DNA of 64,000 nt from Actinomucor elegans (lineage: Eukaryota > Mucoromycota > Mucoromycetes > Mucorales > Mucoraceae), in contig JAMSLZ010000002.1 in assembly GCA_026027325.1 (NCBI GenBank), positions 3,639,541 through 3,703,540 on the forward strand, in the 5' to 3' direction. The notes beneath the pieces were generated by a model. That model searched no databases. It saw only the letters and a program-made list of their open reading frames with translations, and was not told the DNA's origin. The translations under genes were made by a program, and so were the position numbers. Positions within the stretch are counted from its first letter, which is position 1; each line of letters begins with the position of its first letter. Positions 10,273 to 42,372 of the stretch are shown piece by piece.

Positions 10273-10484
10273 GTTGCTTAATTGCACTCTGCAAGTGTAA
10301 TTGTCTTTTCCCTTATGTTACTTTTTTCCTATAATGGTTTTTTACAAGGTTTTTATGACAGTTTACATTACACACGATCTTACATCTAACACAATGCTTA
10401 CATCCTATCCTTTCGTTCTTATGATTATTACATCTTTAATACAAAGATACTTCTAAGGTGATGACCTCATCTGGAAGGGGGCAA

Positions 10485-18447: not shown

Positions 18448-18648
18448 TTGCCCCCTTCCAGATGAGGTCATCACCTTAGAAGTATCTTTGTATTAAAGAT
18501 GTAATAATCATAAGAACGAAAGGATAGGATGTAAGCATTGTGTTAGATGTTAAGATCGTGTGTAATGTAAACTGTCATAAAAAACCTTGTAAAAAACCAT
18601 TATAGGAAAAAAGTAACATAAGGGAAAAGACAATTACACTTGCAGAGT

Positions 18649-18930
18649 GGAGGTCATACAGATACTCGCAATTGTTGTACAATTACTCGTACAGGTTCTG
18701 GGTTAGTGGATGACCTTAGGTACTTACTCATGGGCATATTTTTGGCTGCTGTGATGTTCTCTGGATATGTGTACCCATTTAAATGGCTATTTCCAATTTT
18801 TAAAACGGCTAGAAATATTTGGAATGCCGGAGACATATTGTATAACCACATTCTATTGCACCCGGTCATCCACTAACCCAGAACCTGTACGAGTAATTGT
18901 ACAACAATTGCGAGTATCTGTATGACCTCC
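18649..18930. repeat. Left terminal hairpin module of A1 (arm-loop-arm')
   Basis: Arm 18649-18715 (GGAGGTCATACAG..GGATGACC), loop 18716-18863, inverted arm 18864-18930 ending CCTCC. The arms are perfect inverted copies by eye and contain an inner palindrome (AATTGTTGTACAATT). Read from the end inward the loop starts TTAGGTACTTACTC ('flip'). The loop is open in frame for a hydrophobic 48-codon peptide (MGIFLAAVMFSGYVYPF..). Confidence 0.93.
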
Positions 18931-19152
18931 TAGTGGGATATCTCACCACACACTGGTAGACATACGTTCCATAGCAAGGTAGTAGAGAGGGGGGGGGGGC
19001 CAAAAGGGATGATCTTGTCCAGAGACCTGAATAGTTTCAGCCCCCCTGGGAATGGAAACTAAGGAGCCTAAGGCTACACTGTAGGACTGGGAGTGAACAA
19101 CAGCATTTGGTAGCATACAACTCCTATTATACTACAGCATTCTTAAATAAAC

Positions 19153-20562
19153 ATGTTTCCGAAAGAAATAGTAGATGCGTTTACGTTGCTTATGGCGACT
19201 TACTGGCAGTTTCTTTCTAAAGATTGGCCAGTGTTGGAAAAGACTAAGTATCACCGGTCTGAGGTTAAGCCTGTAAAAGATATCCAGCATGTAAAAACTT
19301 ATGTGTTGGAGCATCTTGGCTACATACCTGTTTTTTTCTTTCTCGTAGAGCTGTTTGCAAACCAAGAATATCCTGGTCCATATTCCAACGTGGACAAAGG
19401 ATTGTTGATAATCTACCAGCTTCTTACCGGTTGTTCTATTGCGCATATGGCACGTTTCATCCCTTCTAGTAGCTACCATGCTATTTACAATGCCTTTTAT
19501 ACAAAATACGGAGAGGAGCTGAATACCTGTTTGGACTATTGCCTACGAAAGATGTTCTCCTCAACAAAGCTGCGAATTATGTGTGCTCTTCACCGAAACC
19601 CTGAAGATTTTAAGCATGTTACCTTGATGATAGATGGACATGATTCTAGAGCAACATATATCAACGCTGCAGATCATGCCATGTTCTATTCGTATAAGCT
19701 TAAGAAGTCTGGCTTCCGAACACAAGTATGTACAGATGTTAATGGGATGGTGTTGTTTGTCTCCGATGCGGCACCATGTTCAGATAACAACGATGGGTCT
19801 ATGCTTGCTGATATGCGGTTGAAGAAGAAGATTAGTAAGTACGATTGTGTTGTCGTTGATGGTGGATACACTACTTTTATAGATCGTATTGTAGCAAATA
19901 ATCGTCACCTGGATCGCCATAATTTTGTATTCCCTATCCGTAAGTCTCGAGGAGTGGGTCTGAAACAAGAAGAAGTTAATTACAACTCCATTCTTGGAAG
20001 CTTTCGTTCCTCGATAGAAGCAACGTTTGGAGAGATTGGAACCTTATTTCAACGATTCAACGGTAAAGGCGTTATTCGAGTTACCGAGATGGAGACATTC
20101 ACGGTACAGTTCAAGCTTGCATGTCTTCTTGCAAACATCAAGAAGTTTGTTAACATTGGGTGTGTTTCTAGCTCTGAACAACATACTTTTTGGATGCAGC
20201 CTAACTTCGACTTTCCAAATGGCAGCAGTAAGAATGTCTATGACGTAGTAAGTACCCTTACAATTGCAGAAAAGTCCCAAGATGCTGAGATGGTAAAAGA
20301 AATACAGCAGCAGTTTCTCTCTTTGGGGGTGAACGAAGATAATGGCTCTGATGACGAACCCATCGACGAGGACTTACCACAAGGACACTACGAGGTTGAG
20401 GCCATTGTTGGGCATCGTGGACCAAAGCATCGTAGAGAGTATTTGGTTAGGTGGGTAGGCTATGATGAGAGTAGCAATAGTTGGCTTTCTCCTAACAACT
20501 TCGACGACTCTGATATTATTATCGAGTATGAGAAAGACGTTAGAAGAAGGCGGAAGAAGTAG
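19153..20562 (+). CDS. DDE transposase with C-terminal chromodomain, element A1
   Basis: 469 aa from ATG. An N-terminal helical region is followed by an RNase-H-like DDE core: D161 in VTLMIDGHDSR, D236 in CVVVDGGYTTF, and E289 in RSSIEATFGEIGTLFQRF. The spacing and motif style (DG-x-Y at the second Asp, E followed by a helix with F..L..RF) resemble the IS5/PIF-Harbinger-like DDE_Tnp_4 group. An acidic linker (DDEPIDED) leads to a chromodomain at ~395-455 (HYEVEAIVGHRG..REYLVRWVGYDESSNSWLSPNNF) and a basic tail RRRRKK. The protein would cut and join element ends, with the chromodomain likely reading histone H3 methyl-lysine to steer insertion. The 3-bp target duplication fits a Harbinger-type enzyme. 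Family placement is inferred by eye; the fold assignment is firm, the superfamily less so. Confidence 0.85.
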   Translation: MFPKEIVDAFTLLMATYWQFLSKDWPVLEKTKYHRSEVKPVKDIQHVKTYVLEHLGYIPVFFFLVELFANQEYPGPYSNVDKGLLIIYQLLTGCSIAHMARFIPSSSYHAIYNAFYTKYGEELNTCLDYCLRKMFSSTKLRIMCALHRNPEDFKHVTLMIDGHDSRATYINAADHAMFYSYKLKKSGFRTQVCTDVNGMVLFVSDAAPCSDNNDGSMLADMRLKKKISKYDCVVVDGGYTTFIDRIVANNRHLDRHNFVFPIRKSRGVGLKQEEVNYNSILGSFRSSIEATFGEIGTLFQRFNGKGVIRVTEMETFTVQFKLACLLANIKKFVNIGCVSSSEQHTFWMQPNFDFPNGSSKNVYDVVSTLTIAEKSQDAEMVKEIQQQFLSLGVNEDNGSDDEPIDEDLPQGHYEVEAIVGHRGPKHRREYLVRWVGYDESSNSWLSPNNFDDSDIIIEYEKDVRRRRKK

Positions 20563-20659
20563 GTTCCACAAGGGGATGTTTTTTAAAACTTGTTAAAATA
20601 TATGGAATATTTAAGCCTTTTAAAGCACATGGTAGCATATTCTAAGCATATACTACACA

Positions 20660-22330
20660 ATGCCCCTTAGTAAAATCTTTATAGATTACAACCAATACCT
20701 TAGTAATATCTATGGTGTCGATTACACTTGTGGTAGCGCGACGAGAGAACGTGTGGGCTGGGATTATGTTAGCGCAGTATTCTGCGACAGCATTGTCTTC
20801 TGGTGTGCTGTACATTGGGAACAAGAGAAGCTAAGTTCTGCTGTAGGAATGTACATGAGCATTCTTCGGCTTCTTCTATCCCGTCACCTACAAGTGGAGC
20901 AGTTCAAGCTCTTTTACACTGGTAGGGGTAAATGGCATGCTGGTGAAGATAAACTTGTCAACGACATCCAACAAAGGGAGGCAAAAGAATCAGGTATTAG
21001 CTGGGATAAATACCAGCCAGGCTATATATCGCTGAGAGTTTCGTTTGAGAATATCAGCTATGGGGAACTGTGGCCAAAGCTTAAGAAGATATGCTGTAAG
21101 GTTGCAAAGAATTATATCCTTTTACATGACTTGGATATAAGCATCGACTGCGCCTACATATCAACACGCGATATTATTAAGGAGTACATTACTTCTAATG
21201 GCGTAGAAGATAAAGATATTGTCAACGATCGTCACTCAGTCGGTGATAACTGCTTATCATGGAGGCAGCATGATAGTTCTAGTGCTAAGATACCCTTACG
21301 AATAAAGATCTATAACAAGTTTGTCCAAATGCTTGAAAGCCGTGAATTAAGGTCTTTAATCGGCTCCCAATTGCACCACTTGGTTTCTAACCCTGACAAA
21401 GATTTTCAAGAGCGCCTTAATAAGTATCGTGGTAATGGTATGACCAGAATAGAAATTACGTTTTATAACACCCAACTCAAGAAGGAAAGCTATTATACCA
21501 AAACTATGTCTAGGGTCCTTGAGTTCCTTGATAATTGTCCAACATACAAGGTCAGCTTCGACAGACAATGGAAGCAACTAGCTAAGAACCTTACGCAAAT
21601 GGCAGCTATATATGTTCCCAAAACAAAGACTTTCGCTTACTGCCATTGGTGGAACTCCCTTACCAAGCGAATGCAAGGCATAATTCATACAAAAGTACCA
21701 GAAGAGTACGTAATGCTCCATCTTGCAAACTTTAGCTTTAACGATAGGCCCATCCACTATCTGGTAGTTAAGTTTGAGAAGAATAGTCATGAATATAAGA
21801 TACTCGAAGACAGCATATATCGTCGTGAAGAAGGATGTTCTGCCATCACGTTGGTTCCAGGGATATCTAACTCCTTAACACCCTATAGAAAGGATTTAAC
21901 CAACAAAGCAGCTTCTTTTGGTGATTTAGGGATTTGTTCTTTCCGCAACATCACCCTCGAATGGCCAAAAAGTAGACTGCGACCTGAAAGAGGAGATAAA
22001 CTTGCGACCATCAGGTTGGCCAAGGAGACACATGATGATAAACTATTACAGCATCTAGATCCCTTCCCAGTGTCTGGAGCTAAACCAGATTATTCTTTCA
22101 TGAAAGTAGGTGTGAAGTACCAAGTAACCGGATATGGTTATGGTACATTCCGAAGTAAGAACTATCTCCACTTACGGCTGTCCAATGGTACCTCAGTCCG
22201 TTGCAGTCCAGGTTTAAAACAAGTTGTAGAGAAGCAACTAGAGAAGCATACCTTGTTCTATGTTTGTCTAATTCGAGTAAAGAAAGTACGTGGTGTTCGT
22301 GATGTAGAATGCGAGATCACCAACGTATGA
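20660..22330 (+). CDS. 556-aa putative replication-initiator-like protein of element A1
   Basis: Lies 97 bp downstream of the transposase on the same strand and ends ~56 bp before the right inverted terminus, so it belongs to the element. No firm family match. Three motifs occur in the order seen in Rep_trans-type rolling-circle initiators: LHDLDISIDCAYIST (~172-186; compare 'TRiDiaiDd'), PLRIKIYNKFVQM (~215-227; compare 'lRiYdK') and GMTRIEITFY (~259-268; compare 'vRvElel'). A candidate catalytic Tyr cannot be chosen among many. The C-terminal ~80 residues (YQVTGYGYGTFRSKNYLHLRL..) look like a small beta domain, perhaps nucleic-acid binding. The order of the motifs is what I see; replication initiation is inference, and a structural or DNA-binding accessory role is an alternative. 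It is missing from element A2. Confidence 0.4.
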   Translation: MPLSKIFIDYNQYLSNIYGVDYTCGSATRERVGWDYVSAVFCDSIVFWCAVHWEQEKLSSAVGMYMSILRLLLSRHLQVEQFKLFYTGRGKWHAGEDKLVNDIQQREAKESGISWDKYQPGYISLRVSFENISYGELWPKLKKICCKVAKNYILLHDLDISIDCAYISTRDIIKEYITSNGVEDKDIVNDRHSVGDNCLSWRQHDSSSAKIPLRIKIYNKFVQMLESRELRSLIGSQLHHLVSNPDKDFQERLNKYRGNGMTRIEITFYNTQLKKESYYTKTMSRVLEFLDNCPTYKVSFDRQWKQLAKNLTQMAAIYVPKTKTFAYCHWWNSLTKRMQGIIHTKVPEEYVMLHLANFSFNDRPIHYLVVKFEKNSHEYKILEDSIYRREEGCSAITLVPGISNSLTPYRKDLTNKAASFGDLGICSFRNITLEWPKSRLRPERGDKLATIRLAKETHDDKLLQHLDPFPVSGAKPDYSFMKVGVKYQVTGYGYGTFRSKNYLHLRLSNGTSVRCSPGLKQVVEKQLEKHTLFYVCLIRVKKVRGVRDVECEITNV

Positions 22331-22528
22331 GTACTTGTTTTTTAAAAGCTTCGCCCAACTGTCAACACATGTTACTCGTACTACAACCTTAGGCTCCTTA
22401 GTTTCCATTCCCAGGGGGGCTGAAACTATTCAGGTCTCTGGACAAGATCATCCCTTTTGGCCCCCCCCCCTCTCTACTACCTTGCTATGGAACGTATGTC
22501 TACCAGTGTGTGGTGAGATATCCCACTA

Positions 22529-22810
22529 GGAGGTCATACAGATACTCGCAATTGTTGTACAATTACTCGTACAGGTTCTGGGTTAGTGGATGACCGGGTG
22601 CAATAGAATGTGGTTATACAATATGTCTCCGGCATTCCAAATATTTCTAGCCGTTTTAAAAATTGGAAATAGCCATTTAAATGGGTACACATATCCAGAG
22701 AACATCACAGCAGCCAAAAATATGCCCATGAGTAAGTACCTAAGGTCATCCACTAACCCAGAACCTGTACGAGTAATTGTACAACAATTGCGAGTATCTG
22801 TATGACCTCC
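22529..22810. repeat. Right terminal hairpin module of A1
   Basis: Arm 22529-22595, loop 22596-22743, inverted arm 22744-22810. Read from the element end inward the loop is in the same orientation as at the left end ('flip'). Confidence 0.93.
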
Positions 22811-22826
22811 AGTGCAATTAAGCAAC

Positions 22827-25800
22827 TCAAGATCTTGTATTATATGCTTTAGGTACAAACGATCTGCTGTGTTTATTACGAGCAGGTATTCTTCGCTTGT
22901 TGATAGTATTAGGCAGGGATCTACCTGTTGTGCTTGCAATGGTTGCTTGACGACGTGTCCAATAGTCTTGAATAGGTTTCTTCGAATCGAAGGTATCAAC
23001 CGTCTGCCAAGTATTGTATTTTTCTTGGTCATCGTATCCAACCCAATGCACGTAATACTCGTATTCACCGTCTGGCAAGAGTCGATGGTTTACAATTGCT
23101 TGTACCTCATAATGTTTCTCGTTAAGTTCGCTTTCAGATCGTTGATCTCCTGATTGAATCAGTCTTATCTGATGCGTAGGTACATCACGAGATAATAAAG
23201 AGCCAGTGAGATCTTCTAAAATGTAACTACCATGCTTGGTGTAGCCTTTAATGATAAAAGGACCTAACCATCTGGGTTGCAGTTTAGATGATTTGAGTAC
23301 GTTCACGATCATAACTTTAGAATTAAGAGGGTACTTTGTTTCAATGATCTTGTTATTCTTTTGGAATTTTAAATGATCGTTTAATTGTGTCTCTTTAATG
23401 CGTTTAGCAATAGAAGGAATAATGACATCTTTGACATATCTCAGCTTCTTATCAATGAGTTTACTATCAGATTTCTCGATATTGATGGTAGGTTTTACAT
23501 CCGTGTAGTCGATAAAGTCATTAGGCTGTCTATTGAACATAACCGCAAAAGGACGAGATTTATGCAATCGCGAATACTGACAATTGACAGAGTATTGGAT
23601 CACGTCTAAATACAAATCCCAAGATTCAGGTTCAACAGCATTAGCAGTTAACGCTTTGATAATACTACGTTTACAGATGCCAACATAGCTTTCTACTACA
23701 CTGTTTCCAGTAGGAGTATAGGGCAAGCTAAGCCGTCTATCCATGCCACTCATTTGTATAAATTGTTTAACCACTTCATTCACAAATTCCATACCATTGT
23801 CATGCGTGATGATCCGAGGGAATCCGAACTGACAACATATGTGAAGTAATTCTTTTGCTACACTGTAACTACTCTTGTCAGGGAGTGCACGTAGAATTGT
23901 AAATCGACTAAAGTAATCTACTACAACTAACATAAAGTTATTACCACGAGATGATGTAGTATTGAAATCACCGAGATCTATACAGATATGATCGAAGACA
24001 CCGTCAGGCAACACGCTTCTAGGAGGGTGATAACCAACTCGATAGATACCATGTGCTTGGCAAGCTTCACAATCATTGATAACTCTTTGAATGTCTTGTC
24101 GCAAATTAGTCCAATGTAATTTGTAATCATTGTGAATAGTTTTCTCAATTGCATTTACGCCAAAATGGCCAAGCAAGTGTGCTTTCATAATAATAGAAAC
24201 GCGATCCTTTTCAGGTGGTGTCATATAATCAGCATATTGCATTGCGCGAGAAATAAGAGGTGTCTTATTGTAACTATCGAACGATGTAGTATTGGATGAG
24301 TCAATGTGGTTGGATGATGTATTGGTATTATCATCGTAGTTTGTAGAAACTGTTGGGAAAGATGAAAAGGCGTAATTTCCTCTTGTTTTATTTTCAGTCC
24401 CGTTTCTAGCAGATAGTATTCTTTTGCGTGACTTGTTTTTATCTGTAGGATACCGTATTTGCAGTTTACGTTCAGAACGCGTGGTATTATATCTTTTCTT
24501 ATGGTTCTCAAATATGTTTTGATGGTTAACAATATTTCCACCCTCCTCCAGACTGTTGGGTTCGTCATCAGAAAACAGTCGACTAAGAGTATCGGGAATG
24601 ATGTTCTTAATTCCAGGAATATGAACAACATCGAACGTAAAAGAAAAAATAGTGTCCCACCAAGTCAGCATCAAGGTGTTGGGGGTGCTTTGATCATGTA
24701 AAAAGATAAGGCTTTTATGATCAGTATGCAAAGTGAATTTAATACCAAATAACCATTTATGATACTTAGTCAACATGTAGACAATAGCAAGTAATTCTCG
24801 TTTTGTTGTACTGTAATTCATTTCGGAGGTAGATAGCTTGCGAGAAGCCATAGTCACATAATGAACCGTATCATTTTTGATATAGTAAATGACTCCACCA
24901 ATACCAGTTTTAGACGCGTCAGTTGCGACATGGAAACGGTAACGAAAGTCAGGAGGAGATAACACGAGAGCAGACGACAAGGCTGCTTGCAAGTTGCGAA
25001 AAGCTTGCGTGTGTTTGTCAGACCATATAGCTGCAAGTGATTTACTACTGCGTAACTCATCAAGTGGAGCTGCTAAACGACTGTATCCAGGAATCGCAGA
25101 ACGAAAGTAATTGAAGTAACCCAAGTATCGCATAATGTCTTTACCCGTCTGAGGAAGAGGCCAGGTGTGTACATTTGATACTTTTCTTGGATCAGGCATC
25201 AATTTACCATCTACAATTGACCAACCCAAAATGTGAATACTTTTCTGAGCAAGTACAATCTTTTCTGGAGAAAGTTGAAGATTTGCGTTTGTGAGGCGAC
25301 GGATAACTTCGGCTACACAATCAGTATGATGTGCTAGAGAATCATTGGTACTGATGCAAATGTCATCGATATAGATCGTTACGTAAGGAAGGTCACTGAA
25401 CAAGTTAGTTAAGGTCCTTTGTACCAAATTAGCAATAAAGGACACACCGAAACATACTTTGCGAAAAGTATATTGCAAGTTAGTAAAAGGACACATAAAG
25501 TTTAACTTGCTTTTGTGAGCAGGGTCAACGAGGAAGCTAGTGAAGCAAGAATGGATATCGATACTAGTAATGATTTTGGCATTACTTAAGCGTTCATGGA
25601 TGTCCGAAATGAGAGGTATATTGTACTTATCCGTACTAATAAGAATCGAGTTTAACTCACGAACGTCAGCTACTACTCTAGGCTTCTTAAACGAATAGAT
25701 ACCATCAGCATTTTTCTTACTAACACATAGAAGGGGAGAATTAAAGCCGGTGTGACTTTGTGCAACTTCTATTACACCTTCATTTTTCCAAGTTTCAATT

Positions 25801-28064: not shown

Positions 28065-28109
28065 TGGTAATAAGATTGTAATTGTTGGAAAAAGCTTGAT
28101 TCAAAAAAA

Positions 28110-28613
28110 TGTTATATCCGGTGCTAAAGACGAAGGATATAATTTAAAATACAATAATAAAAGAATAGACAGTCAATGGAATCAGCTATCCTGATAGTAA
28201 AAGTTATTCTAATGTTTTATTCACAATTCAAAATCAAGTCTTCTTTATATACATTTCATCAGAGCTTAATAGTGTAGCATTCAATATCTATCAGCACGCA
28301 TGGCCGTACAACGGAGTCCAATCCCAGCAGCCACTAATAAGCCTTTCAACCACGCATTGTTGTAATTGTATAACCCACGCGTTATTCGATATTCAGGTCT
28401 TATCTTGAGATACACTCGATACTACTCGATAGTATGATGCCGCGTGTTTCTTGTAAGGATTATTGGCTAATAGTTCTAAGGATGACACATCGCTTGTATT
28501 TATGCAGGCCTCGTTAATCTGATTGGGTTATCAGATAGAGTCCGTGTATGACATAAATGAACAGTTGATTCCTTACTATTATGTCGATGCAAAATAGTAG
28601 GTGGAATACAACA
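28110..28613 (-). repeat. 5' LTR of Gypsy-1 copy 2
   Basis: 504 bp; a TATA-like element (complement of CTTTATATACAT) lies inside. It directly abuts gag sequence of a third Gypsy-1 copy at 28614 with no target duplication. Confidence 0.9.
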
Positions 28614-28751
28614 CTTTGGTAAGGAAAGACGCGAAGTAATGACCTTGTCAGCAAATTCAGTGGGCAAAGCGTGTAAAAACTTATCCACAAGAATGGAGGC
28701 AGGTAAGCACTGGTCAACAGCACGACGACGGAGATCATTGAAGCGATCAAT

Positions 28752-28972
28752 GATAAACATTTACAACTACTTAATATTTTTAACTTTCCTAAAAAATCAA
28801 GGCATAAATATAATGTTGCCTTTTTATCCATAAATAAAATGTTGGTTACTTGTTCTATTTTAGAATAAAATTTATTTATATTATTATTTGTATTCAAAAA
28901 AATCTATTATTTCCTAATTTTTTTATATATTGTACTATTTTGAACATATTTCTGTAATACTAAATGTTCTTC
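28752..28972 (-). repeat. 3' terminal direct repeat of B3 (221 bp)
   Basis: Identical by eye to 31035-31255, and bounded at both of its own ends by the element's inverted terminal motif. Confidence 0.9.
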
Positions 28973-28983
28973 TTATTAATTGA

Positions 28984-30420
28984 TTAATTATTTTCTATTG
29001 ATTTCCAATAATTCAAAATAGTATCATGTGATGTAAAATCTTTTTCTTTTACCCATGAATTATGTTCTTTACCATACTTTTTCCATTTTACAAAATATTC
29101 ATATAAGTTCTTTACTTTTTTGTGTTTAATTATATATTGTATTTCATATATATTTTGATCATTATTACTAGTGATATCTTCCTCCATTTGATCCATAATA
29201 TCTATATTCACTTCATTTATATTTAAATTATTTAAAAATTGATTTTGTAATGATTTTATATCAACGATATTTTCTATTTTATATTGTGTTTTTAATGTTA
29301 CTTCTTTATTCATTTCAATATTATTTTTATAATAATAATCAAAATTATCATTTAGCCATTTGTTGTAATGGGCATTTTCTTCAATTCCAAATAACTCTGT
29401 AAAATATTTTATGTTCAGTAATACTATTGCTAATTTTAGCTGTATATTATATGTCTTATTATCTGTTATTCTAATCTTATTTTGTCCACTAAATCTTTTA
29501 AAAATACTACCTAATTCTGCAAAATATTTTTCTATTTTTGACCTTAATCCACCTAATTCTTCATTGAATTTTTTTTCATCTATGGTTAATTCAACTCCTT
29601 TATCTTTTTTTATAGGATAGCAAAAATTTTTCAAGGATATATTAAATCCAATATTACTAAATTTTTCTATAAATTCTTTTACTGTGTTTTCATATAATCC
29701 ATCAAAACATATACAATCTATTTCATTATAAAACTTATTGATATTTATGTCTAAAAGCATTTTATCATCAGTATTATTTCTACAAGGTAAGGAATCAGAT
29801 ATATAAACACATATTCTATTAATATCTATAATAAATTGTGTATTTAATCCATTTCTTTTTAATTTATACGAGAATAACTCTTTTTTATCTAGATTAATAT
29901 CTTGATATGTTATACGATTATGGTGACCATCAATTAGTAATGTTACATTATCTAACATCATTGGATTAAATTTCTTAGCACAAAGTAATCTCAATGTATG
30001 TGTAGAAAAACATTTTTCTAATTTATTATTTATCCATTTTTCCAATAAATCATAATTATTTATATATAATGATTGATATAATTTATAAAAACTAGTAGAT
30101 GGAATATACATTTCCATTTCATTTATAGATTTTCCATTTAATAAATGTTCTAATAATATCAATACTTTATCTGCTGTTATATATGGACCTGGTAGTTTTA
30201 TATTGTTACATAAATCTGTCAAAAATACAAATGGAGCAATACTTCCTAATTTAATATATATATTTTTTTTAATTCTATCAATATTTGGTATACTCGTTAT
30301 TTTAGATCTATGATATTTCAATTCAACTTTATATATATATTCATTTTTCATAAATTTCCAATACCTATTGTAAATATTTCTGTATTCATTTTCAATTAAT
30401 AAGTCTATATGAGTGTTCAT
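28984..30420 (-). CDS. DDE transposase with C-terminal chromodomain, element B3
   Basis: 478 aa from the first ATG; an in-frame TTG 14 codons upstream is ignored because the ATG aligns with the start of the element A enzyme. Catalytic residues in ATG numbering: D164 (VTLLIDGHHNR), D240 (CICFDGLYENT) and E297 (RSKIEKYFAELGSIFKRF). The chromodomain lies at ~418-472 (IYEIQYIIKHKKVKNL..EYFVKWKKYGKEHNSW). It is clearly homologous to the 469-aa enzyme of element A over its whole length despite very different base composition (Lys/Asn/Ile-rich, AT-rich codons). Shared landmarks include YHRSKI..., PGPY, IPS(T/S)S and the PI(K/R)K..GV block between D2 and E. Role: cutting and joining element ends, with chromatin-guided insertion inferred. 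Confidence 0.87.
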   Translation of the reverse strand: MNTHIDLLIENEYRNIYNRYWKFMKNEYIYKVELKYHRSKITSIPNIDRIKKNIYIKLGSIAPFVFLTDLCNNIKLPGPYITADKVLILLEHLLNGKSINEMEMYIPSTSFYKLYQSLYINNYDLLEKWINNKLEKCFSTHTLRLLCAKKFNPMMLDNVTLLIDGHHNRITYQDINLDKKELFSYKLKRNGLNTQFIIDINRICVYISDSLPCRNNTDDKMLLDININKFYNEIDCICFDGLYENTVKEFIEKFSNIGFNISLKNFCYPIKKDKGVELTIDEKKFNEELGGLRSKIEKYFAELGSIFKRFSGQNKIRITDNKTYNIQLKLAIVLLNIKYFTELFGIEENAHYNKWLNDNFDYYYKNNIEMNKEVTLKTQYKIENIVDIKSLQNQFLNNLNINEVNIDIMDQMEEDITSNNDQNIYEIQYIIKHKKVKNLYEYFVKWKKYGKEHNSWVKEKDFTSHDTILNYWKSIENN

Positions 30421-30510
30421 AAACAAATAAAATGATGTATTTTTATATAAAGAGAAATTCAATTTTTAATATTTTCTATATTTAATAAACTTTTATTTAT
30501 ATATGAAAAT

Positions 30511-30879
30511 TCAATTTTTAATATTTTCTATATTTTCCAAGAACTTATGATTTCTTTTTGCATAATCTAACCATGATTTAAAATTATAAATTTCTTTAAT
30601 ACTAACATATCCTTTTCTTAAACACCAGGATTTGAAATATTCATTTCTAACTTTTTCGTTATCATCTAAAATTGTTTTTATCACTAAATTGGCATGGATA
30701 TTTGTATTGTTTTCACCAACATCATAGAAAGGACCACTATATAAAATTTTATCAATATTTTTTATATTTCCAACCCATTGCAGTATTTTCTTGTTTAATA
30801 TTTCGGATGATTTATTCTTGACATCTTTTTTTTCAGGATTTAGAGTTAAAACCACAGCATAATAATAGATTTTTTCCAT
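30511..30879 (-). CDS. Putative HUH (CRESS Rep-like) endonuclease, element B3
   Basis: 122 aa from the ATG at 30877-30879; an in-frame TTG upstream gives 135 aa. The order of short motifs matches the catalytic domain of CRESS-type Rep proteins. Motif I-like YYAVVLTLNP (~6-15) starts right at the N-terminus. A motif II-like metal site GENNTNIHANLVIK (~56-69) has H-x-N instead of H-x-H or H-x-Q. Motif III-like SWLDYAKRNHKFLEN (~105-119) carries the candidate nucleophile Tyr, with Lys at +2 rather than the common +3. The domain length is right for a stand-alone Rep nuclease, and no helicase follows. Encoded just upstream of the transposase on the same strand. If correct it would nick and rejoin single-stranded DNA at the element. 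The assignment is from motif order only and the deviations leave doubt. Confidence 0.45.
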   Translation of the reverse strand: MEKIYYYAVVLTLNPEKKDVKNKSSEILNKKILQWVGNIKNIDKILYSGPFYDVGENNTNIHANLVIKTILDDNEKVRNEYFKSWCLRKGYVSIKEIYNFKSWLDYAKRNHKFLENIENIKN

Positions 30880-30901
30880 TAAATATAATATTGATGTTAT
30901 T

Positions 30902-31180
30902 TTAAAAATAATTCTCAAATATTATAGATACTTTTATATTTTCCAAAATATCATGCCAAGAATTAGATGCCAAGGAAGTTGTTTTTAGATTTCTCAATGT
31001 GATTAAACGCAATGGAAGTCTAAAAATAGGACAAGATAAACATTTACAACTACTTAATATTTTTAACTTTCCTAAAAAATCAAGGCATAAATATAATGTT
31101 GCCTTTTTATCCATAAATAAAATGTTGGTTACTTGTTCTATTTTAGAATAAAATTTATTTATATTATTATTTGTATTCAA
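30902..31180 (-). CDS. Small Cys-containing ORF of element B3 overlapping its 5' direct repeat
   Basis: A 92-codon reading beginning at TTG; the only in-frame ATG is internal (MDKKATLYL). A better start is the ATG at 31228-31230 in the preceding frame (MFKIVQYIKKLGNNRFF), which hits TGA in a T7 run (TTTTTTTGA). A -1 slip there would fuse both into ~109 aa. The product has a CKCLSCPIF cluster that could bind zinc, and a basic C-terminal half. Its first half lies inside the 221-bp repeat, so the 3' repeat carries a truncated copy. Function unknown; it may be a DNA-binding partner or not a real gene. Confidence 0.35.
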   Translation of the reverse strand: MNTNNNINKFYSKIEQVTNILFMDKKATLYLCLDFLGKLKILSSCKCLSCPIFRLPLRLITLRNLKTTSLASNSWHDILENIKVSIIFENYF

Positions 31181-31255
31181 AAAAATCTATTATTTCCTAA
31201 TTTTTTTATATATTGTACTATTTTGAACATATTTCTGTAATACTAAATGTTCTTC
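31035..31255 (-). repeat. 5' terminal direct repeat of B3 (221 bp)
   Basis: Begins (element strand) GAAGAACATTTA and ends TAAATGTTTATC. It is likely to contain the promoter for the downstream ORFs, by position only. Confidence 0.9.
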
Positions 31256-32314
31256 AATGAAAGCAAAAAGAGATTCACCTTTGGCTAACTTGATGTCAAC
31301 AAGAGAGCGAGCACAGGCAGCACGATCTTCATCAACGGTTGTACCAAACCGAGAGAGGAACTCATTCTTGAACATGAGCCAAGTGGGGGAAGCAACACCA
31401 GCGGCACGAGCGTTCTGGTGGAACTCAACTTCATACCAGGTAAGTTGAGCTTGCGACATTTGAGACAACACTAATCTTTCATAGTTGGTGTCGAAGTCCA
31501 AACGATGAGCATACATTACGTTTTGAAAACGTGTCAAACAAGCAGCAGCATCGATAAAAATATGAGAGTTAGGCTCATGAACTTCACCAACCCATTGAAG
31601 ATAAGGCATGTTGTTGGGACACACACTAGAAACCTTGATGGGTGCCTTGGGATCAACAACAGCGCGAGCATACTTGACAGAGTCAGCATTGGATTTCTCA
31701 ATTAAGGCTTTGGTAGCGATAACAGCCTTAAGAACACTATCCTTCTGCAAGTATTCAGCCTGGAAATCATCAAGATTATCACCAGATAAAGGAGACGAGA
31801 GACGAGCAGCAAGAATGGTTAACTCAATAGTGAGTTGGTTGATAGTATCTTGCATACTACGGAGAGATTCTTCAGCTTGCACTTGTCGATCAACAAAAGA
31901 AGCAGCAGAACCAGAAGATTCTTCCATGGATGCATCAAGAACAGGTAAGTTGGCTTGAGCAACAGAAACAGTAGGTTCACCAGAGTGAATGGAGGCAGCA
32001 GGAGAAGACATTGGTAATAGGATTGTGTTAATTGGAAAAAGCTTGATTCAAAAAAATGTTATATCCGGTGCTAAAGACGAAGGATATAATTTAAAATACA
32101 ATAATAAAAGAATAGACAGTAAATGGAATCAGCTATCCTGATAGTAAAAGTTATTCTAATGTTTTATTCACAATTCAAAATCAAGTCTTCTTTATATACA
32201 TTTCATCAGAGCTTAATAGTGTAGCATTCAATATCTATCAGCACGCATGGCCGTACAACGGAGTCCAATCCCAGCAGCCACTAATAAGCCTTTCAACCAC
32301 GCATTGTTGTAATT

Positions 32315-32596
32315 GGAGGTCATACAGATACTCGCAATTGTTGTACAATTACTCGTACAGGTTCTGGGTTAGTGGATGACCTTAGGTATTTACTCATGGG
32401 CATATTTTTGGCTGCTGTGATGTTCTCTGGATATGTGTACCCATTTAAATGGCTATTTCCAATTTTTAAAACGGCTAGAAATATTTGGAATGCCGGAGAC
32501 ATATTGTATAACCACATTCTATTGCACCCGGTCATCCACTAACCCAGAACCTGTACGAGTAATTGTACAACAATTGCGAGTATCTGTATGACCTCC
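32315..32596. repeat. Left terminal hairpin module of A2
   Basis: 67-bp arms around a 148-bp loop that starts TTAGGTATTTACTC; same orientation ('flip') as both ends of A1. The loop differs from A1 by one visible base (GTATTT versus GTACTT). Confidence 0.92.
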
Positions 32597-32819
32597 TAGT
32601 GGGATATCTCACCACACACTGGTAGACATACGTTCCATAGCAAGGTAGTAGAGAGGGGGGGGGGGGCCAAAAGGGATGATCTTGTCCAGAGACCTGAATA
32701 GTTTCAGCCCCCCTGGGAATGGAAACTAAGGAGCCTAAGGCTACACTGTAGGACTGGGAGTGAACAACAGCATTTGGTAGCATACAACTCCTATTATACT
32801 ACAGCATTCTTAAATAAAC

Positions 32820-34229
32820 ATGTTTCCGAAAGAAATAGTAGATGCGTTTACGTTGCTTATGGCGACTTACTGGCAGTTTCTTTCTAAAGATTGGCCAGTG
32901 TTGGAAAAGACTAAGTATCACCGGTCTGAGGTTAAGCCTGTAAAAGATATCCAGCATGTAAAAACTTATGTGTTGGAGCATCTTGGCTACATACCTGTTT
33001 TTTTCTTTCTCGTAGAGCTGTTTGCAAACCAAGAATATCCTGGTCCATATTCCAACGTGGACAAAGGATTGTTGATAATCTACCAGCTTCTTACCGGTTG
33101 TTCTATTGCGCATATGGCACGTTTCATCCCTTCTAGTAGCTACCATGCTATTTACAATGCCTTTTATACAAAATACGGAGAGGAGCTGAATACCTGTTTG
33201 GACTATTGCCTACGAAAGATGTTCTCCTCAACAAAGCTGCGAATTATGTGTGCTCTTCACCGAAACCCTGAAGATTTTAAGCATGTTACCTTGATGATAG
33301 ATGGACATGATTCTAGAGCAACATATATCAACGCTGCAGATCATGCCATGTTCTATTCGTATAAGCTTAAGAAGTCTGGCTTCCGAACACAAGTATGTAC
33401 AGATGTTAATGGGATGGTGTTGTTTGTCTCCGATGCGGCACCATGTTCAGATAACAACGATGGGTCTATGCTTGCTGATATGCGGTTGAAGAAGAAGATT
33501 AGTAAGTACGATTGTGTTGTCGTTGATGGTGGATACACTACTTTTATAGATCGTATTGTAGCAAATAATCGTCACCTGGATCGCCATAATTTTGTATTCC
33601 CTATCCGTAAGTCTCGAGGAGTGGGTCTGAAACAAGAAGAAGTTAATTACAACTCCATTCTTGGAAGCTTTCGTTCCTCGATAGAAGCAACGTTTGGAGA
33701 GATTGGAACCTTATTTCAACGATTCAACGGTAAAGGCGTTATTCGAGTTACCGAGATGGAGACATTCACGGTACAGTTCAAGCTTGCATGTCTTCTTGCA
33801 AACATCAAGAAGTTTGTTAACATTGGGTGTGTTTCTAGCTCTGAACAACATACTTTTTGGATGCAGCCTAACTTCGACTTTCCAAATGGCAGCAGTAAGA
33901 ATGTCTATAACGTAGTAAGTACCCTTACAATTGCGGAAAAGTCCCAAGATGCTGAGATGGTAAAAGAAATACAGCAGCAGTTTCTCTCTTTGGGGGTGAA
34001 CGAAGATAATGGCTCTGATGACGAACCCATCGACGAGGACTTACCACAAGGACACTACGAGGTTGAGGCCATTGTTGGGCATCGTGGACCAAAGCATCGT
34101 AGAGAGTATTTGGTTAGGTGGGTAGGCTATGATGAGAGTAGCAATAGTTGGCTTTCTCCTAACAACTTCGACGACTCTGATATTATTATCGAGTATGAGA
34201 AAGACGTTAGAAGAAGGCGGAAGAAGTAG
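32820..34229 (+). CDS. DDE transposase with C-terminal chromodomain, element A2
   Basis: 469 aa, identical to the A1 enzyme except one Asp to Asn change (VYNVVS instead of VYDVVS, ~residue 365), outside the D161/D236/E289 triad and the chromodomain. With its partner gene deleted, A2 could supply transposase but would depend on another copy if the 556-aa protein is needed. A G-run in the adjacent left D region is slightly longer than in A1. Confidence 0.87.
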   Translation: MFPKEIVDAFTLLMATYWQFLSKDWPVLEKTKYHRSEVKPVKDIQHVKTYVLEHLGYIPVFFFLVELFANQEYPGPYSNVDKGLLIIYQLLTGCSIAHMARFIPSSSYHAIYNAFYTKYGEELNTCLDYCLRKMFSSTKLRIMCALHRNPEDFKHVTLMIDGHDSRATYINAADHAMFYSYKLKKSGFRTQVCTDVNGMVLFVSDAAPCSDNNDGSMLADMRLKKKISKYDCVVVDGGYTTFIDRIVANNRHLDRHNFVFPIRKSRGVGLKQEEVNYNSILGSFRSSIEATFGEIGTLFQRFNGKGVIRVTEMETFTVQFKLACLLANIKKFVNIGCVSSSEQHTFWMQPNFDFPNGSSKNVYNVVSTLTIAEKSQDAEMVKEIQQQFLSLGVNEDNGSDDEPIDEDLPQGHYEVEAIVGHRGPKHRREYLVRWVGYDESSNSWLSPNNFDDSDIIIEYEKDVRRRRKK

Positions 34230-34436
34230 GTTCCACAAGGGGATGCTTTTTAAAAGCTTCGCCCAACTGTCAACACATGTTACTCGTACTACAACCTTAG
34301 GCTCCTTAGTTTCCATTCCCAGGGGGGCTGAAACTATTCAGGTCTCTGGACAAGATCATCCCTTTTGGCCCCCCCCCCTCTCTACTACCTTGCTATGGAA
34401 CGTATGTCTACCAGTGTGTGGTGAGATATCCCACTA

Positions 34437-34506
34437 GGAGGTCATACAGATACTCGCAATTGTTGTACAATTACTCGTACAGGTTCTGGGTTAGTGGATG
34501 ACCTTA
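34437..34506. repeat. Inner arm and first 3 bp of the right loop of A2
   Basis: Arm 34437-34503 followed by TTA, the target duplicated by insertion of element B1. The loop resumes at 37011. Confidence 0.9.
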
Positions 34507-34727
34507 GAAGAACATTTAGTATTACAGAAATATGTTCAAAATAGTACAATATATAAAAAAATTAGGAAATAATAGATTTTTTTGAATACAAATAATAATA
34601 TAAATAAATTTTATTCTAAAATAGAACAAGTAACCAACATTTTATTTATGGATAAAAAGGCAACATTATATTTATGCCTTGATTTTTTAGGAAAGTTAAA
34701 AATATTAAGTAGTTGTAAATGTTTATC
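34507..34727 (+). repeat. 5' terminal direct repeat of B1 (221 bp)
   Basis: Identical by eye to 36790-37010; each repeat starts G(A)AGAACATTT and ends AATGTTTATC. Confidence 0.92.
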
Positions 34728-34860
34728 TTGTCCTATTTTTAGACTTCCATTGCGTTTAATCACATTGAGAAATCTAAAAACAACTTCCTTGGCATCTAAT
34801 TCTTGGCATGATATTTTGGAAAATATAAAAGTATCTATAATATTTGAGAATTATTTTTAA
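34582..34860 (+). CDS. Small Cys-containing ORF of element B1
   Basis: Same reading as in B3 (92 codons from TTG, with CKCLSC). The upstream ATG frame (34532) meets TGA right after a T7 run; all B copies keep exactly seven T, so the break is a family feature and not a lesion in one copy. A -1 frameshift or an unannotated start would be needed. Confidence 0.35.
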   Translation: MNTNNNINKFYSKIEQVTNILFMDKKATLYLCLDFLGKLKILSSCKCLSCPIFRLPLRLITLRNLKTTSLASNSWHDILENIKVSIIFENYF

Positions 34861-34882
34861 AATAACATCAATATTATATTTA

Positions 34883-35251
34883 ATGGAAAAAATCTATTAT
34901 TATGCTGTGGTTTTAACTCTAAATCCTGAAAAAAAAGATGTCAAGAATAAATCATCCGAAATATTAAACAAGAAAATACTGCAATGGGTTGGAAATATAA
35001 AAAATATTGATAAAATTTTATATAGTGGTCCTTTCTATGATGTTGGTGAAAACAATACAAATATCCATGCCAATTTAGTGATAAAAACAATTTTAGATGA
35101 TAACGAAAAAGTTAGAAATGAATATTTCAAATCCTGGTGTTTAAGAAAAGGATATGTTAGTATTAAAGAAATTTATAATTTTAAATCATGGTTAGATTAT
35201 GCAAAAAGAAATCATAAGTTCTTGGAAAATATAGAAAATATTAAAAATTGA
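34883..35251 (+). CDS. Putative HUH (CRESS Rep-like) endonuclease, element B1
   Basis: 122 aa identical to the B3 protein: LTLNP near the N-terminus, NIHANL metal-site candidate, YAKRN nucleophile candidate. The gap to the transposase ATG is ~90 bp and contains a repeated motif (ATATAGAAAATATTAAAAATTG twice in part). Confidence 0.45.
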   Translation: MEKIYYYAVVLTLNPEKKDVKNKSSEILNKKILQWVGNIKNIDKILYSGPFYDVGENNTNIHANLVIKTILDDNEKVRNEYFKSWCLRKGYVSIKEIYNFKSWLDYAKRNHKFLENIENIKN

Positions 35252-35341
35252 ATTTTCATATATAAATAAAAGTTTATTAAATATAGAAAATATTAAAAAT
35301 TGAATTTCTCTTTATATAAAAATACATCATTTTATTTGTTT

Positions 35342-36778
35342 ATGAACACTCATATAGACTTATTAATTGAAAATGAATACAGAAATATTTACAATAGGTA
35401 TTGGAAATTTATGAAAAATGAATATATATATAAAGTTGAATTGAAATATCATAGATCTAAAATAACGAGTATACCAAATATTGATAGAATTAAAAAAAAT
35501 ATATATATTAAATTAGGAAGTATTGCTCCATTTGTATTTTTGACAGATTTATGTAACAATATAAAACTACCAGGTCCATATATAACAGCAGATAAAGTAT
35601 TGATATTATTAGAACATTTATTAAATGGAAAATCTATAAATGAAATGGAAATGTATATTCCATCTACTAGTTTTTATAAATTATATCAATCATTATATAT
35701 AAATAATTATGATTTATTGGAAAAATGGATAAATAATAAATTAGAAAAATGTTTTTCTACACATACATTGAGATTACTTTGTGCTAAGAAATTTAATCCA
35801 ATGATGTTAGATAATGTAACATTACTAATTGATGGTCACCATAATCGTATAACATATCAAGATATTAATCTAGATAAAAAAGAGTTATTCTCGTATAAAT
35901 TAAAAAGAAATGGATTAAATACACAATTTATTATAGATATTAATAGAATATGTGTTTATATATCTGATTCCTTACCTTGTAGAAATAATACTGATGATAA
36001 AATGCTTTTAGACATAAATATCAATAAGTTTTATAATGAAATAGATTGTATATGTTTTGATGGATTATATGAAAACACAGTAAAAGAATTTATAGAAAAA
36101 TTTAGTAATATTGGATTTAATATATCCTTGAAAAATTTTTGCTATCCTATAAAAAAAGATAAAGGAGTTGAATTAACCATAGATGAAAAAAAATTCAATG
36201 AAGAATTAGGTGGATTAAGGTCAAAAATAGAAAAATATTTTGCAGAATTAGGTAGTATTTTTAAAAGATTTAGTGGACAAAATAAGATTAGAATAACAGA
36301 TAATAAGACATATAATATACAGCTAAAATTAGCAATAGTATTACTGAACATAAAATATTTTACAGAGTTATTTGGAATTGAAGAAAATGCCCATTACAAC
36401 AAATGGCTAAATGATAATTTTGATTATTATTATAAAAATAATATTGAAATGAATAAAGAAGTAACATTAAAAACACAATATAAAATAGAAAATATCGTTG
36501 ATATAAAATCATTACAAAATCAATTTTTAAATAATTTAAATATAAATGAAGTGAATATAGATATTATGGATCAAATGGAGGAAGATATCACTAGTAATAA
36601 TGATCAAAATATATATGAAATACAATATATAATTAAACACAAAAAAGTAAAGAACTTATATGAATATTTTGTAAAATGGAAAAAGTATGGTAAAGAACAT
36701 AATTCATGGGTAAAAGAAAAAGATTTTACATCACATGATACTATTTTGAATTATTGGAAATCAATAGAAAATAATTAA
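35342..36778 (+). CDS. DDE transposase with C-terminal chromodomain, element B1
   Basis: 478 aa from ATG, identical by eye to the B3 enzyme (D164, D240, E297, chromodomain ~418-472). Its stop at 36776-36778 lies 11 bp before the 3' direct repeat. Intact, so B1 may be mobile. Confidence 0.87.
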   Translation: MNTHIDLLIENEYRNIYNRYWKFMKNEYIYKVELKYHRSKITSIPNIDRIKKNIYIKLGSIAPFVFLTDLCNNIKLPGPYITADKVLILLEHLLNGKSINEMEMYIPSTSFYKLYQSLYINNYDLLEKWINNKLEKCFSTHTLRLLCAKKFNPMMLDNVTLLIDGHHNRITYQDINLDKKELFSYKLKRNGLNTQFIIDINRICVYISDSLPCRNNTDDKMLLDININKFYNEIDCICFDGLYENTVKEFIEKFSNIGFNISLKNFCYPIKKDKGVELTIDEKKFNEELGGLRSKIEKYFAELGSIFKRFSGQNKIRITDNKTYNIQLKLAIVLLNIKYFTELFGIEENAHYNKWLNDNFDYYYKNNIEMNKEVTLKTQYKIENIVDIKSLQNQFLNNLNINEVNIDIMDQMEEDITSNNDQNIYEIQYIIKHKKVKNLYEYFVKWKKYGKEHNSWVKEKDFTSHDTILNYWKSIENN

Positions 36779-36789
36779 TCAATTAATAA

Positions 36790-37010
36790 GAAGAACATTT
36801 AGTATTACAGAAATATGTTCAAAATAGTACAATATATAAAAAAATTAGGAAATAATAGATTTTTTTGAATACAAATAATAATATAAATAAATTTTATTCT
36901 AAAATAGAACAAGTAACCAACATTTTATTTATGGATAAAAAGGCAACATTATATTTATGCCTTGATTTTTTAGGAAAGTTAAAAATATTAAGTAGTTGTA
37001 AATGTTTATC
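36790..37010 (+). repeat. 3' terminal direct repeat of B1 (221 bp)
   Basis: Second copy of the 221-bp unit. The internal edge is ATAA|GAAGAAC and the outer edge TTTATC|TTA. Confidence 0.92.
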
Positions 37011-37225
37011 TTAGGTATTTACTCATGGGCATATTTTTGGCTGCTGTGATGTTCTCTGGATATGTGTACCCATTTAAATGGCTATTTCCAATTTTTAAAA
37101 CGGCTAGAAATATTTGGAATGCCGGAGACATATTGTATAACCACATTCTATTGCACCCGGTCATCCACTAACCCAGAACCTGTACGAGTAATTGTACAAC
37201 AATTGCGAGTATCTGTATGACCTCC
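37011..37225. repeat. Remainder of the right loop and outer arm of A2, loop in 'flop' orientation
   Basis: The loop continues GTATTTACTC.. to GCACCC at 37158, then the outer arm 37159-37225 ends CCTCC. Read from the element end inward the loop begins GGGTGC, the reverse of the other three A termini. Confidence 0.88.
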
Positions 37226-37649
37226 AGTGTATAAAGCATTATTACCAAGAACCAGAATGTAAATGACTGTATTTGATTATGTTAAAATATCTTTATTTAT
37301 ATATCACTCTGAGCAAGTAGACGCTAATTGATAAATACTATCTCTCACACCAAATATTACATTCAATACTATTACCTTTGGATATATTGATCCCGACACT
37401 CCTCGCCGCTAATCTTGGTCCGCTCATTTGGTTATTATCCCTGGTCTTCTTTATACGCAGTCCAACCTTGTTCCTGGCAAATCGTAATATGAATTTAGAA
37501 TCAAGTACCGATCGAGAAAAAGTATATAAGAGATGCGTTTTATCACCTTTTGACCAGTTAATCAATTCTTGATCGATAATAAAAAAAACTATCCACAGTT
37601 TTAAAAGTATTTCTATCTTCCAAAATCTCCATCTACCACCTTTACAACA
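37226..37649 (+). mobile_element. Truncated LTR-G
   Basis: Lacks the first ~82 bp of LTR-G; starts at AGTGTATAAAGC right after element A2 and ends CCTTTACAACA. The AGT would be the element A target duplication, so A inserted within this LTR. Confidence 0.85.
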
Positions 37650-40217: not shown

Positions 40218-40484
40218 ATAATAAAAAATGTTGAATCCGAAGTAGCTAAAGACCAAAGATTCACGTAATAATAATAATAAGACTTGTATATGTAATCAGA
40301 TTACTGATTGGTAATAAGATAGTTATTCATTCTTTATTTCGATCATAAAATGAAGGTGTATTTATATTAGTTAAAGGTCTTATGTTTAACCGATTGACAG
40401 GTACTGCTGAGAATGAATGAATGAAACAATAATTCATGTTTAGCCGATTACTTGCAAGTTACGGTAGAATTAGTTTATACAAGT
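40218..40484. other. Non-coding segment shared with the left part of the window
   Basis: The first ~95 bp match 3138-3221 (GAAGTAGCTAAAGACC.., an AAT triplet run), and the rest matches 2300-2400 inverted. No gene is seen. Confidence 0.5.
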
Positions 40485-42350: not shown

Positions 42351-42372
42351 AATAACATCAATATTATATTTA

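What the first reader, a model, noticed from the sequence alone, without database searches (positions are those of the whole stretch)
18649..37225. Two transposon families that pair a DDE transposase-chromodomain fusion with a Rep-like protein
Seen: elements A and B encode full-length homologous transposases (D161/D236/E289 in A; D164/D240/E297 in B), each ending in a chromodomain. Each has a second conserved ORF on the same strand: 556 aa in A, 122 aa in B. Known: HUH and Rep_trans nucleases start rolling-circle or rolling-hairpin replication, whereas DDE transposases normally cut and paste with no such partner. Inference: these elements combine replication by a Rep-type nuclease with DDE integration guided to chromatin. 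I know of no described family with this combination, but could not search.
Basis: partly seen in the sequence, partly recalled or inferred. Interest (0 to 1): 0.9.

Follow-up and report, generated by a model that had tools for sequence, protein, structure and literature searches.

The report
Transposon with flip-flop hairpin ends
A fungal cut-and-paste-type transposon carries, next to its integrating enzyme, a gene resembling bacterial plasmid replication starters, and its ends are long hairpins whose loops sit in either direction, the mark left by viruses that copy themselves by folding back, so it may be a jumping gene that copies itself before it inserts.

Summary
Element A (18649-22810) and element B (34506-37012) each encode a DDE_Tnp_4 transposase ending in a chromodomain, plus a second ORF (556 aa in A, 122 aa in B). 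The 556-aa protein resembles Rep_trans initiators: its conserved residues follow the published active-site order and RepDE is the most probable Foldseek hit shown, though no hit passes E 0.001. The 122-aa protein has HUH-Rep-like motifs only; its fold could not be tested. The main new result is A's ends: a 67-bp perfect palindrome around a 148-nt loop, which near-identical copies carry in both orientations (24 versus 11 of 35 ends), independently at left and right, while sequence variants are mostly shared by the two ends of one copy. That resembles the flip/flop signature of hairpin-primed (parvovirus-like) replication. Integration leaves 3-bp target duplications (12 of 14 end pairs; exact empty site for the window copy). 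B and a Rep-less relative have direct terminal repeats, with no inverted unit seen. Most other transposase places listed in this genome have neither second ORF nearby. Best reading: a DDE transposon copying itself through hairpin ends with a Rep_trans-like nickase. Replication is inferred, not shown.

The parts
18649..22810 (+). Element A, complete copy, 4162 bp, 3-bp TSD AGT on both sides (18646-18648 and 22811-22813)
   Evidence: Exact empty-site paralog at window 10246-10327 (minus strand) with a single AGT; flank comparison of copies
18649..18930 (+). Left terminal hairpin of A: arm 18649-18715 (67 bp), loop 18716-18863 (148 nt, orientation f), arm 18864-18930
18931..19073 (+). Rest of the ~426-bp left terminal inverted repeat (D-like region, with a G tract of variable length)
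   Evidence: self-BLAST 99.8% over 426 bp
19153..20562 (+). A transposase, DDE_Tnp_4 with C-terminal chromodomain (residues 413-461)
   Evidence: Pfam hits; D161/D236/E289
20660..22330 (+). A second ORF, 556 aa, Rep_trans-like putative nickase (D43, D163, K216xY218xK220xxQ223, R263xE265)
   Evidence: active-site comparison with passages of PMC4797284
22529..22810 (+). Right terminal hairpin of A: arm 22529-22595, loop 22596-22743, arm 22744-22810 (orientation f as read on the reverse complement)
10246..10327 (-). Paralogous empty site for the A insertion (retroelement copy without A)
32315..37225 (+). Second A copy: transposase 32820-34229, no 556-aa ORF, right hairpin loop (orientation F) interrupted by B; its outer flanks (ATT / AGT) do not match
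34506..37012 (+). Element B (ends uncertain by 1-2 bases), with 224-bp direct terminal repeats 34506-34729 and 36789-37012
   Evidence: target duplication TTA or TTAG, depending on where the ends are set
34883..35251 (+). B second ORF, 122 aa, HUH-Rep-like motifs, fold untested
35342..36778 (+). B transposase, DDE_Tnp_4 with C-terminal chromodomain
28752..31255 (-). Minus-strand B copy (ORF122 30511-30879, transposase 28984-30420)

Best explanation
Element A is a DNA transposon that combines two machines. A DDE transposase of the IS5/PIF-Harbinger (DDE_Tnp_4) type, with a chromodomain, inserts it with 3-bp target duplications (shown by sequence). A second protein with a Rep_trans-like nickase core is proposed to nick at or near the terminal hairpins, so that the 67-bp palindromic ends fold back and prime their own copying by host polymerase. 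Each hairpin transfer would invert the 148-nt loop, giving flip and flop ends, as in parvovirus rolling-hairpin replication. Shown: the palindromes, the two loop orientations at both ends of copies, sharing of sequence variants by both ends of most copies, clean integration, conservation of the Rep-like residues. Inferred: nicking by the 556-aa protein, self-primed copying, an extrachromosomal linear intermediate, chromatin targeting. Copies that lack the 556-aa ORF but have mixed orientations would be served in trans. B has a different, HUH-like partner and direct terminal repeats, which would suit release by rolling-circle replication between two origin copies; this last part is speculative.
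For: (1) Loop orientation: 38 A ends were listed in the fetched loci (one shared end listed twice, one interrupted); 35 are unambiguous, 24 in one orientation and 11 in the other (left 12/6, right 12/5). A separate genome search for the loop also shows both orientations (40 of 63 candidates scored). Of 36 distinct intact loops 32 are identical over 148 nt, so inversion is commoner than substitution. (2) The other 4 loops are the two ends of two copies, and in each copy the same private substitution is at both ends. A D-region indel agrees between ends in 13 of 14 copies (p=0.011, taking copies as independent), while orientation agrees in 6 of 14. (3) 3-bp TSDs in 12 of 14 end pairs; exact empty site. 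(4) 556-aa family: D43 in 62/64, D163, K216, Y218, K220, Q223, R263 in 64/64, E265 in 63/64, in the order of the RepDE/RepSTK1 residues D, D, RxYxKxxE/Q, E (passages of PMC4797284); Y218 lies in a predicted beta strand. AF2 pLDDT 93.6; RepDE 4cwe has the highest Foldseek probability (0.91) of the 50 rows shown, TBPs follow, and Rep_trans is said to share the TBP fold (passages of PMC13107129). Residues 133-288 of the Apophysomyces member match PHROG 702 'replication protein', E=1.6e-6. (5) Another genus: R. pusillus P0099 joins a DDE-chromodomain protein (51% to A) to a relative of the 556-aa protein (31%).
Against: No nicking, replication or extrachromosomal DNA is shown. Foldseek gave 0 of 699 matches at E<=0.001; RepDE is E=2e-3 with low TM-scores (0.15/0.27) and rmsd 10.8, and type IV secretion chains of low probability rank above it by E-value. 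Motif II is absent, the Tyr-to-Glu spacing is longer than in RepDE (47 against 23 residues), and PF02486 is not among the 25 families shown of 42 weak ones. Only 1 of 64 members hits PHROG 702 at E<=1. No Pfam helicase was found. The Rep-like half of P0099 is damaged around the Tyr motif (YDTF for YNKF). A copies without the 556-aa ORF also show both orientations, so the gene is not needed in cis. One copy (C1) disagrees between its ends for the D-region indel, and copies may share descent, which weakens the p value. The tail-to-tail double copy on C21 lacks a matching TSD at its outer ends, and so does the second A copy in the window (ATT/AGT, left out of the 14).
Confidence: 0.52

Rival explanations
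1. A is an ordinary DDE cut-and-paste transposon. The loops invert by homologous recombination or cruciform processing between the 67-bp arms, and the two ends are kept alike by gene conversion. The 556-aa protein is a DNA-binding accessory factor, as second proteins are in ISL2EU and (recalled) PIF/Harbinger.
For: TIR-TIR recombination inverted 9% of IS loci examined in Wolbachia (PMC3004938 abstract). Copies without the 556-aa ORF also show both orientations. Most autonomous ISL2EU candidates have a second ORF (PMC4482050 passage). F2 and B, whose terminal units have only short imperfect stems, show no inverted unit (9 of 9 and 6 of 6 pairs direct).
Against: 11 of 35 ends are inverted while 32 of 36 distinct loops carry no substitution, a high rate for recombination between 67-bp arms. 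Conversion explains shared variants only as a separate process. It gives no role to the conserved nickase-like residues.
Confidence: 0.32
2. The 556-aa protein is an active nickase that works in transposition itself (opening hairpin-capped ends after excision) without replicating the element; loop inversion is a by-product of hairpin opening and repair.
For: Same active-site evidence; hairpin-forming ends. A DDE-type enzyme that makes hairpins exists (Kat1, PMC4763223, start of abstract in the listing only).
Against: Does not by itself explain sharing of variants by both ends.
Confidence: 0.12
3. The mixed loop orientation is an assembly error, because the arms could confuse an assembler.
For: The arms are perfect 67-bp inverted repeats.
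Against: The assembly has 27 contigs for 36.5 Mb with near-identical repeats resolved, which suggests long reads (inference; no read data seen).
Confidence: 0.04

Closest known systems
Rep_trans (PF02486) initiators of pT181-type plasmids and MobT relaxases
   Same: Order of acidic residues and K/R-x-Y-x-K-xx-E/Q motif; Tyr on a beta strand; RepDE has the highest Foldseek probability shown
   Different: Eukaryotic, inside a DDE transposon, no motif II, no Pfam hit; a 2026 paper says Rep_trans enzymes appear restricted to bacteria (passage of PMC13107129)
Parvovirus rolling-hairpin replication (recalled; the term also in passages of PMC7826260)
   Same: Palindromic ends with a central part in flip and flop orientation; sequence shared between the two ends
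   Different: Known Reps there are HUH with an SF3 helicase (recalled); here Rep_trans-like with no helicase found, and integration by a DDE transposase
[quoted passage not shown]
   Same: DDE domain, TIRs, short TSD; ISL2EU has a second ORF (passages of PMC4482050)
   Different: Chromodomain fusion, Rep-like partner instead of YqaJ or Myb (recalled), varied 3-bp TSD, invertible hairpin ends; 'chromo' occurs 0 times in that paper
KolobokP (DDD/E plus His-Me homing endonuclease)
   Same: DDE transposon with an added nuclease gene (title and start of abstract of PMC9587614 in the listing)
   Different: The added enzyme is a homing endonuclease, not a replication initiator
Helitrons and Replitrons (recalled)
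   Same: Eukaryotic transposons using a Rep-type nuclease
   Different: They move by the Rep nuclease itself and have no DDE transposase

Membership tests
Rep_trans (556-aa protein) | Metal-binding D, D, E on separate strands | tested here: met
   D43 62/64, D163 64/64, E265 63/64; predicted strands 41-52, 153-165, 261-268. Residues assigned by order along the sequence, not by superposition
Rep_trans (556-aa protein) | RxYxKxxE/Q with the Tyr in a beta strand | tested here: met
   KxYxKxxQ 64/64 with K for R; Y218 in predicted strand 212-219; reference residues
Rep_trans (556-aa protein) | Motif II T/SxY/ExG | tested here: not met
   GDNCxSW at that place; motif definition
Rep_trans (556-aa protein) | Rep_trans/TBP fold | tested here: inconclusive
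   RepDE probability 0.91 and TBPs, but E=2e-3, no hit at E<=0.001, low TM-scores
Rep_trans (556-aa protein) | Match to PF02486 | tested here: not met
   Not among the 25 shown of 42 weak families over 64 members
HUH Rep (122-aa protein) | Motifs I, II (HUH or HUQ), III (YxxK) in that order (motifs recalled) | tested here: inconclusive
   L11 in 19/20 and T12 in 18/20, then [LIV]13-[ND]14 (one row lacks this part); H62-x-N64 in 20/20, N not H or Q; Y106-[AS]-[KE]-[RK]109 in 20/20
HUH Rep (122-aa protein) | HUH fold | not testable with these tools
PHIS / PIF-Harbinger transposons | DDE_Tnp_4 transposase with D, D, E | tested here: met
PHIS / PIF-Harbinger transposons | TWA target duplications (PIF/Harbinger group) | tested here: not met
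   AGT, AAT, ATT, AAT, ATC, TGA, ATA, TGT, TAC, TAT, AGG, ACC
PHIS / PIF-Harbinger transposons | Myb/SANT (recalled) or YqaJ partner protein | tested here: not met
   No Pfam family on the 556-aa protein at E<=5; only DUF3685 at E=0.018, below cut-off, on the 122-aa protein
Rolling-hairpin replicons | Palindromic termini in flip and flop, independent at the two ends | tested here: met
   (orientation agrees in 6 of 14 copies; Fisher p 0.26)
Rolling-hairpin replicons | Initiator nick site at the hairpin base, replication intermediates | not testable with these tools
   needs biochemistry or reads

The most novel reading that the evidence does not exclude
A eukaryotic DNA transposon that multiplies by rolling-hairpin replication, driven by what would be the first eukaryotic Rep_trans-type initiator, and then integrates the linear product with a chromodomain-DDE transposase: a virus-like replicate-then-integrate life cycle in a transposon without capsid or polymerase genes. 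Related elements (B) would have taken up an unrelated HUH initiator, so that initiator capture happened at least twice in one transposase lineage.
Probability: 0.4. Interest if true: 0.95.

Novelty: categorically new. Interest (0 to 1): 0.85.

Why it matters
DDE transposons are thought to gain copies through host repair or by moving during DNA replication (recalled). A transposon that carries its own initiator and flip/flop hairpin ends would be a new way to spread. It would join transposons to single-stranded DNA viruses and bacterial plasmids, and extend Rep_trans enzymes to eukaryotes. It is directly testable, since loop orientation is a built-in record of hairpin replication.

Tried and rejected
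Pfam (E<=5) and PHROGs (E<=5) on the two second ORFs alone gave nothing significant, nor did NCBIfam; PDB sequence searches gave nothing below E=1. No relatives of the 556-aa protein were confirmed in viral contigs (42 pattern matches), prokaryote genomes (51 pattern matches) or phages; plasmids gave 2 hits at E>=3. No relatives of the 122-aa protein in viral contigs. look only for places that match two short patterns, so distant relatives can be missed. The C21 tail-to-tail double A copy was first read as a replication dimer; set aside as proof because its outer flanks lack a matching TSD and deletion between two hairpins would give the same thing. Poly-G tract length was looked at as a marker of shared ends and is uninformative. 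A possible nick site at the hairpin base was not pursued. B and F2 terminal units were checked for inversion: 6 of 6 and 9 of 9 pairs direct (from the 40 and 41 places listed, which are capped).

Rows dropped before counts: the end search asked for exact 16-nt and 28-nt strings, so ends mutated there are not counted; the interrupted end and the shared C21 end are not in the 35; the C22 copy (broken outer arm) is in the orientation and indel pairs but not in the TSD pairs; the C21 double copy is in the TSD pairs only; the window's second A copy is in none.

Literature: no paper describing this combination was found in searches (open-licence PMC only); that is weak evidence of absence. Of the papers used I saw passages of PMC5714925, PMC4797284, PMC4482050, PMC13107129, PMC7826260 and PMC8956199, the abstract of PMC3004938, and listings only for the rest.
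Full report
WHAT WAS CLAIMED AND WHAT IS THERE. The window is the end of a 3.7-Mb contig of a 36.5-Mb genome, fungal by its relatives, and runs into TTAGGG telomere repeats. The second ORFs are real: 556 aa in A and 122 aa in B. Element A is 18649-22810. A paralogous retroelement in the same window (10246-10327, minus strand) carries the uninterrupted target with one AGT, and joining A's flanks minus one AGT reproduces it exactly. A second A copy (32315-37225) lacks the 556-aa ORF and has a B element (34506-37012) inserted in its right terminal hairpin.

ELEMENT A'S ENDS. Each end of A begins with a 67-bp arm, a 148-nt loop, and the exact reverse complement of the arm. In the fetched loci 38 ends were listed: one is the single end shared by two tail-to-tail copies on C21 and so is listed twice, and one is interrupted by B. 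The search asked for exact short strings, so ends mutated there are missed. Of the 35 unambiguous ends, 24 carry the loop in one orientation (f) and 11 in the other (F): left 12 f and 6 F, right 12 f and 5 F. Of 36 distinct intact loops, 32 are identical; the other 4 are both ends of two copies, each copy with one private substitution present at both its ends. A one-base indel in the inner part of the repeat agrees between the two ends in 13 of 14 copies (3 with, 10 without, 1 discordant; p about 0.011 if copies are independent, which shared descent may violate), while orientation agrees in 6 of 14 (pairs entered by hand). So sequence is mostly shared between the two ends of a copy but orientation is not. 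Flank pairs show exact 3-bp duplications in 12 of 14 cases; the misses are one short copy on C26 and the outer ends of the C21 double copy. The window's second copy, not among the 14, does not match either. Copies without the 556-aa ORF (7 shown) also carry both orientations.

THE 556-AA PROTEIN. It has 107 matches in the protein database, one identical to it. Eight rows carry an organism name: Apophysomyces, Rhizomucor pusillus (3), Mortierella (3) and Gryganskiella; Apophysomyces and Rhizomucor are Mucoromycota, Mortierella alpina Mortierellomycota. In 64 aligned sequences D163, K216, Y218, K220, Q223 and R263 are invariant, D43 is D in 62 and E265 is E in 63. Carr et al. (passages of PMC4797284) give the Rep_trans active site as metal ligands D46, D142 and E214 and R189-x-Y191-x-K193-xx-E196 in RepDE, with Q at the last place in RepSTK1. 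The order fits; the Tyr-to-Glu spacing is longer here (47 against 23). Motif II (definition from PMC5714925) is not conserved. AlphaFold gives pLDDT 93.6 and pTM 0.84. Among the 50 Foldseek rows shown of 699, RepDE has the highest probability (0.91) and TATA-binding proteins follow; they share the Rep_trans fold according to PMC13107129 (passages). No match reaches E 0.001 and TM-scores are low. One member of 64 (P0025, Apophysomyces) matches PHROG 702 'replication protein' at E=1.6e-6 over residues 133-288, the active-site region. The same 2026 paper says that Rep_trans enzymes appear restricted to bacteria, so a eukaryotic relative would be new. A Rhizomucor pusillus gene model joins a DDE-chromodomain protein (51% to A) to a relative of this protein (31%, damaged around the Tyr motif).

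ELEMENT B AND RELATIVES. B has 224-bp direct terminal repeats. By eye, 39 of the 40 B units listed lie in the direction of their element, and the 40th is a solo unit; 6 of 6 pairs that could form are direct. A relative on C21 (L077) has the same plan with 296-bp direct repeats, a 128-aa relative of the 122-aa protein and a 428-aa transposase; a second place on C22 has the same gene pair. The 504-aa family (F2), 42% identical to A's transposase, has about 230-bp direct repeats, 3-bp duplications in 6 of 9 copies by eye, and no other ORF of 75 aa or more inside its ends in 3 loci; 9 of 9 pairs are direct. Of 62 places of other transposase families from the capped lists have neither second ORF within 2 kb; two are the C21 and C22 pairs just named, and the other seven neighbours lie in or beside separate A or B insertions or on the other strand. 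Except for F2 and L077 these sequences were not read, so a divergent partner is not excluded. The 122-aa family (20 sequences) keeps L-T-[LIV]-[ND] (with one T-to-S change and one row lacking that part), H62-x-N64 and Y106-[AS]-[KE]-[RK], which resembles HUH Rep motifs I-III (motif names recalled). Library support is weak (PF23343 at E=0.01 in 1 of 20) and its structure could not be predicted.

INTERPRETATION. Loop inversion commoner than substitution, no agreement of orientation between the two ends, and sharing of variants between ends are what hairpin-primed replication would produce. Recombination between arms plus gene conversion between ends can also produce them, but needs two processes and a high inversion rate. 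A conserved nickase-like protein in the element favours the first. I rate rolling-hairpin-like replication with DDE integration at 0.52 (lowered from 0.55 when the second window copy's missing TSD and the dependence of copies were written in), and recombination with an accessory protein at 0.32. Whether the lack of inversion in B and F2 reflects the missing Rep_trans-like protein or their short stems cannot be told.

LIMITS. Literature searches cover open-licence papers only.

Noticed in passing
window 36548-44042 and 50209-57704: Tandem duplication with a spacing of about 13.66 kb, 99.93% identical over 7.5 kb, including B copies; flank swaps suggest unequal crossing-over between B copies.
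   Followed up: partly
window 63800-64000: The window ends in TTAGGG repeats, so it is a chromosome end; the nested transposons are subtelomeric.
   Followed up: no
G000:C21:2358262-2366184 (L055, L033, L037, L056): Two A copies tail to tail sharing a single terminal hairpin, as in a replication dimer, but without matching TSD at the outer ends.
   Followed up: partly
G000:C1:84840-85062 (L035): A solo 223-bp B terminal unit inserted in A's 556-aa ORF with a short target duplication: solo repeats exist, as solo LTRs do.
   Followed up: partly
G000:C3:188207-188500 and 15 other places: A 70% relative of the 122-aa ORF in 16 places with equal scores, each with one in-frame stop; in the capped lists only 2 of 16 have another family's transposase within 3 kb, on the other strand.
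   Followed up: partly
L047, L048, L049, L057, L058, L059, L061: Seven A copies lack the 556-aa ORF, with the junction at a TTTTTAAAA repeat; three junction sequences suggest more than one loss or later mutation.
   Followed up: partly
L077 1330-3655: Third transposon family with 296-bp direct terminal repeats and a 122-aa-type partner, inserted inside a B copy.
   Followed up: partly
window 18716-18863: A perfect 12-bp palindrome (CCATTTAAATGG) sits near the middle of the invertible loop.
   Followed up: no
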